Assembly: GCA_017882375.1 (NCBI GenBank) | Contig: JADGPP010000025.1 | Span: 1 to 43,264, forward strand | DNA: 43,264 nucleotides | Direction of reading: 5' to 3' | Origin: Solirubrobacteraceae bacterium | GTDB lineage: Bacteria; Actinomycetota; Thermoleophilia; Solirubrobacterales; Solirubrobacteraceae | In this document: positions 18,927 through 22,093 of the stretch, one piece after another | How positions within the stretch are numbered: position 1 is the first letter of the stretch | Layout: every line of letters starts with the position of its first letter | Position numbers and translations under genes: made by a program | The notes under the pieces: generated by a model | Database searches by the model: none | What the model saw: the letters and a program-made list of their open reading frames with translations, nothing else | What the model was told of the DNA's origin: nothing

Positions 18927-19604
18927 ATGTACGCGATCATCGTCGGAGCCGGCAAGGTCGGCCGCAACCTCGCGCGAGAGCTGATCGACAAGGGTCACGA
19001 GGTCACGTTGATCGAGTCCTCGCGCCCGCGCTACCTGGCGATCGAGGAAGAGCTCGAGCACTCCGTCCAGTACGGGGACGCAACCGAGCTGTGGGTGCTC
19101 GAGCGCTCGGGCATCCAGCGCGCGGATCTGGTCATCGCGGTCACCGGCGACGACGAGGACAACATGCTCGTCTGCCAGGTCGCCAAGGAGAAGTACCTCT
19201 GCGATCGCATCATCGCGCGCGTCAACAACCCGCGAAACCACGACCACTTCCGCCTGCTCGGGATCCAGCCGGCGGTCTCCGCGACCGACCTGATCCTGCG
19301 CCTGATCGAGCACGAGGTGCCCCGCTACGGCCTCGTGCATCTGCTCGCGCTGGAAGAGGAGCGCCTGGAGATCATCGAGCTCGAGGTCAGCGCAGATGCG
19401 CCGACGGTCGGCGAGACGGTCGCCGACATCAACCTTCCCGAGGGCAGCCTGATCATCTCGGTGCTGCGCGGCGGGTCCGGCTTCGTGCCCAAGCCCGACA
19501 CGGTGATCGAGGCCGGCGACGAAGTGCTGCTCGTGCTCGACCCCGGGCTGGAGGAGGCGATCACCGCCTACTTCGCTCCGAACGGGGTGGGGAGCACCGG
19601 CTAG
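18927..19604 (+). CDS. trkA: Potassium uptake protein TrkA (KTN + RCK_C)
   Basis: A 225-residue two-domain regulator. The N-terminal KTN domain has IIVGAGKVGRNLARELIDKGHEVTLIE-type sequence, Asp at the end of beta2-equivalent ESSRPR, VQYGDATELWVLERSGIQRADLVIAVTGDDEDNM, and RIIARVNNPRNHDHF. The C-terminal TrkA_C domain covers about 140-220 (LEIIELEVSADAPTVGETV to ITAYFAPNG). It sits in the cytoplasm on a K+ channel or transporter. No TrkH/TrkG channel gene is nearby; the only transporter in the cluster is the APC-USP protein. Confidence 0.93.
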   Translation: MYAIIVGAGKVGRNLARELIDKGHEVTLIESSRPRYLAIEEELEHSVQYGDATELWVLERSGIQRADLVIAVTGDDEDNMLVCQVAKEKYLCDRIIARVNNPRNHDHFRLLGIQPAVSATDLILRLIEHEVPRYGLVHLLALEEERLEIIELEVSADAPTVGETVADINLPEGSLIISVLRGGSGFVPKPDTVIEAGDEVLLVLDPGLEEAITAYFAPNGVGSTG

Positions 19605-19665: not shown

Positions 19666-19738
19666 TCCGGGATAGTCCAATTGGCAGTGACGCCCGGTTC
19701 TGGTCCGGGAGATTGGGGTTCGAGTCCCTGTCCCGGAG
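19666..19738 (+). tRNA. tRNA-Gln (anticodon CTG)
   Basis: Cloverleaf readable: acceptor TCCGGGA / TCCCGGA, anticodon stem CCCGG / CCGGG enclosing loop TTCTGGT (anticodon CTG, Gln), T-loop TTCGAGT, discriminator G. CCA is not encoded. A TATCAT box at 19643 may be its -10. Bases 19719-19738 recur exactly at 21524-21543. Confidence 0.95.
19719..19738 (+). repeat. Attachment-site core, proximal copy (in tRNA-Gln 3' end)
   Basis: The 20-mer TTCGAGTCCCTGTCCCGGAG covers the T-loop through the acceptor 3' strand. An identical copy occurs 1,805 bases downstream; the flanking bases differ on both sides. Confidence 0.8.
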
Positions 19739-19744
19739 TTTGCA

Positions 19745-19771
19745 AAAGCCCTGCTAACAGCGGGCTTTCCT
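19745..19771 (+). terminator. Terminator of tRNA-Gln
   Basis: AAAGCCC (19745-19751) pairs with GGGCTTT (19762-19768), with an inner GCT/AGC extension, loop AAC and one bulged T. The 3' side ends TTTCCT and is followed immediately by the group II intron 5' end, the kind of site used by group IIC introns. Confidence 0.75.
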
Positions 19772-20200
19772 GTGTACGCCGGGCATGACCAGCCGCTCGG
19801 GGGTGCAAGTCCCCTGTGGAGGTTGATCGCGCCAACCACAAGCCGAGGGCAACTGCGTCGTCGCGAGGCGGGGTGGGAAGGAAGCTGGAGGCGAATTCGC
19901 GACCCGAGAGATACGAACCGCATCAGAGGCGGGGCGGCCCGGGCGAGCCAGCACGATGTGGCGAAGCCCGATGCCATCAAGGGGCCGTCACGTAAATGCG
20001 ACGGGTGCGCATGGGGTGTCTTTGATGAGGCAAACTACTGGCCAAGCAGGGCGAAACAGCTGTACGATGCGCGCCAGGACGGAAGAAGCTGTATCCTCCG
20101 CGCGCGGAGGAGTGCCTGTTGGGGGTTTTCGGCTGGCTTTCGTCCGAACAGGCTCCCTGGAGGGGGCGAGGACAATGCTCAAGGGCTAGGCGTCCTGGGG
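19772..20200 (+). mobile_element. Group II intron remnant, 5' portion (no domain V, no maturase)
   Basis: Begins GTGTACGCC, matching the GUGYG 5' consensus. It continues with a hairpin GGGG-TGCAAGT-CCCC, a second hairpin around 19815-19842, GAGGGCAACTGCGTCGT, GGAAGGAAGC and GATACGAACCGCATC, a sequence set I know from domain I of bacterial group II introns. No reverse-transcriptase ORF follows, only ATGCTCAAGGGCTAG at 20174-20188 where one might have begun. The conserved domain V hairpin (AGC ... GAAA ... GTTC) was not found. The 3' limit is approximate. The 144-codon ORF across this region is ribozyme RNA, not protein. Confidence 0.65.
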
Positions 20201-20220
20201 TGATGAGAATGGAGACAGAT

Positions 20221-21000
20221 ATGACTGGAAGGATTCCTAAGACGGCCGCGAGGCTGTCTGCGGCTATTCTCGCGGCAACTGCGCTCTTGGCCATCGTGGC
20301 TGGGACAGCGGGTGCCGAAGTGGTCTACAACAACGTTCCGAGCCCGTTGCCCGCGAACTTTGCGTCGATCGGCTTGGCGGCGACCTCCACTTCGGAGTTC
20401 GGCGGCCAGGTCGAACTCGCGGGTACAGCCCGCAAGAACCCGGAAGTGACGGTCGTGATGAGCAGTTGGACATGTGAAACCGGAGCGTGGTTCAGCAAAG
20501 ACTGCAAAACGACCAAGAACAAGACGTTCAAGGTGCCGGTCACTATCCGCATATACGGGACGGGGCCGGGAGAACTGGCCGAGCCGCCGCTCGCGGAAAA
20601 GACGAAGACCGTCAAGATGCAGTACCGGCCGTCTTCAAACCCGTCGTTGTGCCCGGGGGGGGAGACGTGGTACCAGGAATCTACAAAAGAATGCTCCCAC
20701 GGCCTCGCGTTCGCGATCGGGCCGATCAAGCTGAAGTCCAAGAAAATGCCCAAGAACGTGATCGTCACGGTCGCCTACCCACCCACAGGGCCGGCTGAAT
20801 CTCTGAACATATCGGTAAGCGAACCGCCGGAAAAAACACTGTCGGTGGGTAAACAGCCGGTGGAAGAATGGTTTGCCAACTCGAAATCGAGCGAAATGTA
20901 TTGCCCAGGAGCGAAAGACGTGGGCAAACTTGGACCCGAGGAAGGGGTGGGCTGCCAAGGAGTCAACTACCAGCCTGTGATTGCGATCAGCGCCGAATAG
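20221..21000 (+). CDS. Secreted protein of unknown function (island passenger gene)
   Basis: A 259-residue protein with a clear signal peptide: basic MTGRIPKTAARLSAA, hydrophobic core ILAATALLAIVAG, cleavage near AGA-EV. The mature part starts VVYNNVPSPLPANFAS and contains TSEFGGQVELAG, VTVVMSSWTCETG, and FKVPVTIRIYGTGPG, a pattern I associate with a secreted family of soil actinobacteria whose function is unknown. Six or so Cys, spaced for disulfides. ATG 20221 was chosen for GGAG six bases upstream; upstream ATG/GTG codons lie in the intron remnant. Codon use is less GC-biased than neighbours (frequent AAA, ATA), suggesting transfer. Followed by a strong terminator. Confidence 0.8.
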   Translation: MTGRIPKTAARLSAAILAATALLAIVAGTAGAEVVYNNVPSPLPANFASIGLAATSTSEFGGQVELAGTARKNPEVTVVMSSWTCETGAWFSKDCKTTKNKTFKVPVTIRIYGTGPGELAEPPLAEKTKTVKMQYRPSSNPSLCPGGETWYQESTKECSHGLAFAIGPIKLKSKKMPKNVIVTVAYPPTGPAESLNISVSEPPEKTLSVGKQPVEEWFANSKSSEMYCPGAKDVGKLGPEEGVGCQGVNYQPVIAISAE

Positions 21001-21030
21001 GCAAGACCAGCGATCCGGATGTGCAGCATC

Positions 21031-21065
21031 TGACGACGGCCCCGCCAATGGCGGGGCCGTCGTCA
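21031..21065 (+). terminator. Strong hairpin terminator after the secreted-protein gene
   Basis: Perfect 16-base stem TGACGACGGCCCCGCC / GGCGGGGCCGTCGTCA with the loop AAT, 30 bases after the stop at 21000. The most stable simple hairpin in the window. No T-tract. Confidence 0.85.
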
Positions 21066-21215
21066 CGTAATGACTGTCACCGAATTGGCAGGCTGGTCGC
21101 CGTTGTTGCGCTAGGGCTGGGGCTGCCGTCGGGTGGCAGCGCCGGCAGGGGCACGATGTGATACCTGCGTAGATCGTCTTACGATCGTGATCAAGTATCG
21201 GGAGGACGGACGCCG
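21066..21215. other. Spacer inside the island, no gene seen
   Basis: Between the terminator and the transposase remnant. Contains a short palindromic stretch GATCGT-CTT-ACGATC at 21172-21186 and no supported ORF. Probably decayed IS or island sequence. Confidence 0.4.
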
Positions 21216-21395
21216 TTGGCCGGCGGCGCCTGGTCTCTGAAGGAGGGCATGCAGGAGACGCTCACCGTCACTCGCCTCGGGGTCCGCGGCGCGCTGAAGC
21301 GCACGCTGCAGAGCACCAACCCTTGCGAGTCGATGATCGAGTGTGTCCGCCGATCCAGCCGCAACGAAGAGGTCGCTACGCTCGTCACCGTCTGA
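21216..21395 (+). pseudogene. IS256-family (Mutator-type) transposase remnant
   Basis: The frame from 21216 reads GGAWSLKEGMQETLTVTRLG, then VRGALKRTLQSTNPCESMIE and CVRRSSRN, which is the C-terminal region of IS256-group transposases (SL-EGM-ETLTVTRLGV ... STNP-ESMIE). After SRN it jumps to EEVATLVTV and a stop, which looks like the extreme C-terminus; the usual R-KRW...RW-AAGM...YR-LA stretch of about 60 residues is missing. No start, no catalytic DDE residues and no intact ends remain. Bases 21396-21508 may be the IS right flank. Confidence 0.75.
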
Positions 21396-21508
21396 GAATC
21401 ACACCCGGGTCGCCACCGAAGTTCCACGCCGGCCGGGACATCCTCGAACCCGGTCCGGCCCAAGCTCTGCAACCACGCGGGATTTGGCTCTAGCAGTAGG
21501 ATTGCGCC

Positions 21509-22093
21509 ATGACGCTGACACGATTCGAGTCCCTGTCCCGGAGCTCGATCAGAAAGCTCCGAATTGTGGTGGCGCAGGTAGCATTTGTGCTCGCGGCTTG
21601 CGCGGCACTGGCGTCCACCGCCCAGGCCGCCCACACGATCTCCTGGGGCAGTCCCTTGCGAACGCCCCCGTCGCGCACGCTGAGCGCACCGGTCGACGCC
21701 GCCTACTGGCAGCAGTCGGTGGCGCCGAAGGCGGGGCAGATCGTCACGATCACGCTGTGGGGCCGTGTGGCCAGCGGCCAGCCGACGATCCTCTTTCAGG
21801 ACCTGCGCCCGATCGGTGGCGGCAGGTTGAAGGTCATCAGCACGACGCAGCCGTTCAAGCTGACCGGGACGACGGCCAAGCGCACGTTCAGGCCGATCAA
21901 CTTCTTCGTGCACAAGGGCGATCACGTCGGCTTGGCGACGATCGGCGGCAGCTACGAGGTCTTCGCGGCGGCTCCCGGTGGGACGACCAACGGCTTCGTC
22001 GGCGCCGGTGGCGACATGAACGGCAGTCAGTTCAGCGGCAAAGCGCACAGCGGCATCGAACTGCTGCAGCGGATGGGCGAGCGCGTCGGCTGA
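21509..22093 (+). CDS. Secreted protein of unknown function whose N-terminus includes a tRNA remnant
   Basis: A 194-residue protein with a signal peptide: n-region MTLTRFESLSRSSIRKLR, hydrophobic core IVVAQVAFVLAACAALAS, cleavage near AQA-AH. The mature part reads HTISWGSPLRTPPSRTLSAP, then VTITLWGRVASGQPTILFQD, and ends GIELLQRMGERVG; it resembles no family I can name, though it has the look of a beta-sandwich fibre or carbohydrate-binding fold. ATG 21509 lies on the island side of the att copy, with a weak AGGA upstream. The next in-frame candidates are GTGs at 21566/21569, which would leave a signal peptide without charge. Confidence 0.7.
   Translation: MTLTRFESLSRSSIRKLRIVVAQVAFVLAACAALASTAQAAHTISWGSPLRTPPSRTLSAPVDAAYWQQSVAPKAGQIVTITLWGRVASGQPTILFQDLRPIGGGRLKVISTTQPFKLTGTTAKRTFRPINFFVHKGDHVGLATIGGSYEVFAAAPGGTTNGFVGAGGDMNGSQFSGKAHSGIELLQRMGERVG
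21524..21543 (+). repeat. Attachment-site core, distal copy
   Basis: Exact second copy of TTCGAGTCCCTGTCCCGGAG from the tRNA-Gln 3' end, without the 5' half of the tRNA, as expected for the far end of an element integrated in a tRNA gene. It lies in frame inside the 21509-22093 gene and encodes FESLSRS of its signal-peptide n-region. Confidence 0.8.

What the first reader, a model, noticed from the sequence alone, without database searches (positions are those of the whole stretch)
19666..21543. Perfect 20-base duplication of the tRNA-Gln 3' end brackets a decayed 1.8 kb island
TTCGAGTCCCTGTCCCGGAG at 19719-19738 (tRNA-Gln T-loop to acceptor end) is repeated exactly at 21524-21543, with different flanks. 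An intact tRNA upstream and a 3'-only copy downstream is the classic footprint of integration into a tRNA. Everything foreign-looking in this part of the window lies between the copies: group II intron fragment, secreted-protein gene with atypical codon use, and IS256 remnant. No integrase remains, so this is a degraded or passively mobile insertion hotspot.
Basis: partly seen in the sequence, partly recalled or inferred. Interest (0 to 1): 0.7.

Follow-up and report, generated by a model that had tools for sequence, protein, structure and literature searches.

The report
Decayed mobile island in tRNA-Gln gene
A 1.8 kb piece of foreign DNA is inserted at the end of a glutamine tRNA gene in a soil bacterium, left behind by a mobile element that has lost the enzyme that moved it; relatives carry other inserts or nothing at the same spot, which is a well-known kind of event seen here at a newly recognised site.

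Summary
The 20-mer occurs exactly twice in the 3.57 Mb genome, at tRNA-Gln(CTG) and 1805 bp downstream. Relatives in the genus (Solirubrobacteraceae; one member is palsa_744) settle the interpretation. Synteny is TrkA, tRNA-Gln, convergent ABC transporter. Five relatives have only 20-52 bp between tRNA and ABC gene. Six others have inserts bracketed by the same repeat (one with 1 mismatch, one partial), with different cargo. The 42 bp just inside the right copy are also homologous to the right ends of the G003 and G005 inserts, and in G003 a truncated tyrosine-recombinase gene lies ~140 bp from that end. So this is the footprint of integrase-mediated insertion into a tRNA 3' end at a genus-wide hotspot. 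The window copy has no integrase: a CIME-like remnant (attL/attR without recombinase). Known kind, new site. Whether the integrase-less cassettes still move is not shown.

The parts
19666..19738 (+). tRNA-Gln (CTG), target gene; its 3' 20 nt (19719-19738) are the left copy of the att core (attL side)
   Evidence: ARAGORN; Rfam RF00005; exact repeat
19739..19771 (+). terminator-like hairpin directly after the tRNA; target of the group II intron
   Evidence: fold -12.3 kcal/mol, z -2.28; intron relatives also begin after GC hairpins
19772..20026 (+). 5' fragment of a group II intron, truncated before its reverse transcriptase; DNA homology to full introns ends at 20010
   Evidence: RF02001 at 19857-20026; 80-84% identity over ~237 nt to introns in G162, G092, G089, the G089 one encoding a TIGR04416 RT/maturase, E 1.7e-121
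20221..21000 (+). cargo: intact secreted-protein gene of unknown function (MTGRIPKTAARL..., 259 aa)
   Evidence: homologs 42-51% identical at other loci in five congeners, same start and signal peptide; no Pfam hit on the longer frame and no NCBIfam or PDB hit; lower GC3
21031..21065 (+). strong terminator hairpin of the cargo gene
   Evidence: -36.6 kcal/mol, z -7.38
21216..21395 (+). IS256-family transposase C-terminal remnant
   Evidence: NF033543 E 1.3e-4, profile 275-319 of 338
21482..21523 (+). conserved right end of the element, inside the right core copy
   Evidence: with the core, 63 bp at 85.7% identity to the right end in G003 (E 3e-11) and 65 bp at 78% in G005; 60 bp without the core: 0 of 2000 shuffles reach the score for either
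21524..21543 (+). right copy of the 20-nt core, displaced tRNA-Gln 3' end (attR side)
21509..22093 (+). second secreted-protein ORF whose first codons run through the right core copy; accessory, absent from relatives' sites, perhaps an older insertion
   Evidence: absent; homologs match from about residue 16 on

Best explanation
Remnant of a site-specific integrative element in the 3' end of tRNA-Gln(CTG). A tyrosine integrase recombined a 20-bp core (T-loop to discriminator base) on an incoming circle with the same sequence in the tRNA, leaving the tRNA whole and a displaced 3'-end copy at the far end of the insert. The site is a recurrent hotspot in this genus, filled independently by different cargo. 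In this genome the integrase is gone, and the insert was further altered by a terminator-targeting group II intron (later truncated) and an IS256 insertion (later eroded). What is left is a secreted-protein gene between attL and attR, i.e. a cis-mobilizable-element-like (CIME-like) remnant. Shown: repeat, empty sites, parallel occupied sites, shared right ends, truncated integrase in one relative. Inferred: that an integrase related to the G003 fragment did it, and any present mobility.
For: Only two copies of the 20-mer in the genome. TrkA, tRNA-Gln, ABC synteny with 20-52 bp gaps in five congeners and kilobase inserts in others. Second core copies downstream in G005 (+1613), G007 (+1319), G009 (+2304, 1 mismatch), G011 (+1494), G003 (separate contig, about 1 kb before the ABC gene) and a 15-nt copy in G017. 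In G005 the right copy directly abuts the ABC gene. Right-end homology of the window with G003 and G005. Truncated tyrosine recombinase (PF00589, E 1.4e-8) followed by a tandem GGGCCA/GGGCCAG repeat and then the core in G003, with two HTH_17 excisionase-like ORFs nearby. The same kind of repeat (GGGCCAGGATTTGGGCCAGTCGTGC and variants) follows the tRNA in G005, G003, G007, G009 and the displaced core in G002, and similar repeats follow related integrase genes elsewhere (L190, L224). Occupied and empty sites are interleaved on the TrkA tree (weakly supported).
Against: No intact integrase was found at this site in any genome examined, so the enzyme is inferred from one truncated gene. The window lacks the left-end repeat seen in relatives (intron position or erosion). 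Genomes are draft assemblies, and the large G003 element spans two contigs that were not joined. No excision data.
Confidence: 0.92

Rival explanations
1. The right-hand 20-mer is simply coding sequence of the gene at 21509-22093 (codons for FESLSRS) and matches the tRNA by chance or by a local duplication, without any integrase.
For: The 20-mer lies in frame in that ORF.
Against: Chance expectation about 0.01 in the window. Homologs of that ORF do not share the first ~15 residues. The same 20-mer lies at the far end of inserts in several relatives. Homology continues 42 bp outside the tRNA-like part.
Confidence: 0.03
2. The inserts are moved as present-day cassettes: integrase-less attL/attR units excised and reinserted in trans by an integrase elsewhere in the genome or on a co-resident element.
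For: Five different small (1.3-2.3 kb) units with core copies at both ends and no recombinase motif in the loci scanned. Many tyrosine recombinases elsewhere in these genomes, including distant relatives of the G003 fragment. Contigs break 2 bp past the core in G020 and G023, and G022 contigs overlap across it, as mixed populations would give.
Against: Deletion after independent insertions gives the same picture. No identical unit was seen at two sites within one genome. Contig breaks have other causes.
Confidence: 0.25
3. The variable gap is an ordinary accessory region filled by illegitimate recombination and transposons at a convergent intergenic spot; repeats are secondary.
For: Some relatives (G002, G004, G016) have inserts with no second 20-mer within 3 mismatches; introns and IS elements also land here.
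Against: Exact repeats, shared right ends and an integrase remnant in occupied sites.
Confidence: 0.05

Closest known systems
tRNA-gene genomic islands as catalogued in Islander (PMC4383910)
   Same: tDNA target kept whole, displaced 3' fragment marks the other end; tyrosine integrase family
   Different: the window copy has no integrase gene of its own, so a search that starts from integrases would miss it
CIME (cis-mobilizable element; definition in PMC5704250)
   Same: attL and attR kept, integration and transfer genes lost; accretion with neighbouring elements possible (gene at 21509-22093)
   Different: present mobility untested; descent from an ICE or IME rather than a prophage or satellite unknown
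Dehalococcoides ssrA genomic islands (PMC3146451)
   Same: 20-bp direct repeat of a small-RNA gene 3' end, one hotspot with different cargo per strain, many islands without an integration module
   Different: target is tmRNA and the enzyme a serine recombinase; here tRNA-Gln and (in G003) a tyrosine recombinase remnant
Terminator-targeting group II introns (PMC8919778)
   Same: the intron fragment at 19772 starts right after a terminator-like hairpin, as do full relatives in the order
   Different: only about 240 nt of the 5' part remain; class not assigned

Membership tests
tRNA-integrated genomic island | intact tRNA at one end and identical 3'-end fragment at the other | tested here: met
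tRNA-integrated genomic island | empty sites in relatives | tested here: met
   20-52 bp gaps in G001, G006, G018, G013, G012
tRNA-integrated genomic island | integrase gene next to an att site (expected in an intact, autonomous island; not in a remnant) | tested here: not met
   none between the copies in the window; no PF00589 match on its contig among the matches listed (17 of 19); truncated in G003. Hence filed as a remnant, not as an autonomous island.
CIME | attL and attR retained, no recombinase or transfer genes | tested here: met
   both core copies exact; ORFs between them are a secreted protein and remnants of an intron and IS256
CIME | can be excised by a recombinase supplied from elsewhere | not testable with these tools
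   needs excision PCR or reads
CIME | derived from an ICE or IME | tested here: inconclusive
   integrase and excisionase-like remnants in G003, but conjugation genes were not searched for specifically
Group II intron (19772 fragment) | ribozyme domains and RT ORF | tested here: not met
   RF02001 only; no RT in the window copy; full relatives with RT frames in G162, G092, G089; so it is a fragment of one

The most novel reading that the evidence does not exclude
The genus carries a family of tiny (1.3-2.3 kb) integrase-less tRNA-Gln cassettes (toxin-antitoxin genes, a diphthamide-synthase-like protein, secreted proteins) with conserved ends that still move in trans, a tRNA-based counterpart of gene cassettes.
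Probability: 0.2. Interest if true: 0.6.

Novelty: new member of a known kind. Interest (0 to 1): 0.35.

Why it matters
It documents a site-specific integration hotspot in an uncultured soil lineage, shows that repeat and synteny evidence finds islands that integrase-based searches miss, and gives a small, comparable set of loci in which to ask whether integrase-less att cassettes still move.

Tried and rejected
Viral contig scan for the 20-mer: nothing. Genome-collection scan: 44 stretches, mostly tRNA-Gln genes, including other taxa, and tRNA-Asn in Dormibacterota-like MAGs, so the sequence alone is not diagnostic outside this genus. Search for an intact relative of the G003 integrase next to tRNA-Gln: none found; G026 has a 270-aa ORF next to a tRNA-like 3' fragment. 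A prophage in G002 C26 first looked like the helper, but its 40-nt repeat is of tRNA-Gly(CCC), a different site.

Full report
Observation. tRNA-Gln(CTG) lies at 19666-19738. Its last 20 nt recur exactly at 21524-21543, with different flanks. The genome holds no other copy within one mismatch, and chance in the window is about 0.01.

Relatives. The protein upstream (TrkA, 18927-19604) was found in nearly all of 61 related genomes, 23 of the same genus. Their downstream regions were taken out and compared. The order TrkA, tRNA-Gln, ABC transporter (convergent) is conserved. The distance from tRNA to ABC gene is 20-52 bp in G001, G006, G018, G013 and G012 (empty sites) and up to 2.8 kb in others. 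The genes between the copies in the window, and the ORF at 21509-22093, are absent from all of these gaps at E 1e-4.

Parallel insertions. The same 20-mer recurs at the far end of inserts in G005 (1613 bp on), G011 (1494), G007 (1319; there the tRNA copy has one change and the right copy is perfect), G009 (2304, one mismatch) and, as 15 nt, G017. In G003 the tRNA is on one contig and the right copy on another, about 1 kb before its ABC gene, so the element is larger, at least about 3.5 kb; its full content was not settled. Cargo differs: nucleotidyltransferase/HEPN genes plus an XRE-type regulator in G005 and nucleotidyltransferase/HEPN in G003, a diphthamide-synthase-like protein in G007, SnoaL-like proteins (by eye, not by a profile) in G009.

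Shared ends. The 42 bp inside the window's right copy, with the core, match the right end of the G003 element at 85.7% over 63 bp (E 3e-11) and of G005 at 78% over 65 bp. Without the core, no shuffle of 2000 reaches the score for either pair. A pair of GGGCCAG-type repeats follows the tRNA terminator in G005, G003, G007 and G009, and the displaced core in G002 C26. In G003 a tyrosine-recombinase C-terminus (PF00589 E 1.4e-8, 101-aa frame) ends just before such a pair and about 140 bp from the right core, with two HTH_17 (excisionase-like) ORFs further in. Related integrase genes elsewhere in the order also end before similar repeats (L190, L224), and a G026 one ends about 40 bp before a tRNA-like 3' fragment. 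I infer that integrases of this kind use the repeats as arm sites; this was not tested.

Inside the island. 19772 begins a group II intron fragment directly after a hairpin. DNA homology to full introns in G162, G092 and G089 ends at 20010; these relatives also follow hairpins, one behind a tRNA. It is a separate event, in line with terminator-adjacent introns described in PMC8919778. The cargo gene starts at 20221, has homologs with the same start and a conserved CCCCTGGAGGGGG element upstream, ends in a strong terminator and is not decayed. The IS256 remnant is 47 residues.

Right of the second copy. The ORF 21509-22093 reads through the core. Its homologs match only from about residue 16, so its present start was probably made or replaced by the insertion. 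Since relatives lack the gene here, it may belong to an older insertion whose far end is gone, as in accretion (PMC5704250). This is inference.

Verdict. A classic tRNA-site insertion, now without integrase: same kind as tRNA islands (PMC4383910, from its abstract) and integrase-less ssrA islands of Dehalococcoides (PMC3146451). New site and lineage, known kind. Present mobility is open; contig ends 2 bp past the core in G020 and G023 and a 99-bp overlap across it in G022 hint at mixed populations but have other possible causes.

Noticed in passing
G002 C26 (L136/L137; reversed-contig coordinates 12605-12678 and 22273): Prophage-like region with an integrase, bracketed by a 40-nt repeat of tRNA-Gly(CCC); about 700 bp beyond its right end is a copy of the Gln core plus left-end repeats without the tRNA, followed by RelE-like and XRE-type genes.
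   Followed up: partly
window about 20155-20172 and upstream of homologs (L090, L091, L094, L096): Near-palindromic CCCCTGGAGGGGG element about 60-70 nt before the start codon of a genus family of secreted proteins; possible regulatory site.
   Followed up: no
G000:C13:20940-23435: Three tyrosine recombinase genes in a row on one strand (recombinase-in-trio arrangement); similar clusters in G003, G007, G006, G022.
   Followed up: no
L146, L158, L160, L166, L173, L177, L187 (Chloroflexi/Dormibacterota-like MAGs): The same 20-mer away from any tRNA, while L167 and L172 carry it in tRNA-Asn(GTT): possibly displaced tRNA-Asn ends of other islands.
   Followed up: no
tRNA-Gln of G000, G002, G003, G022 versus G005, G004, G011: Within one genus two quite different D and anticodon arms are joined to the same acceptor and T-arm 3' end; might reflect repeated replacement of the 3' part by insertions.
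   Followed up: no
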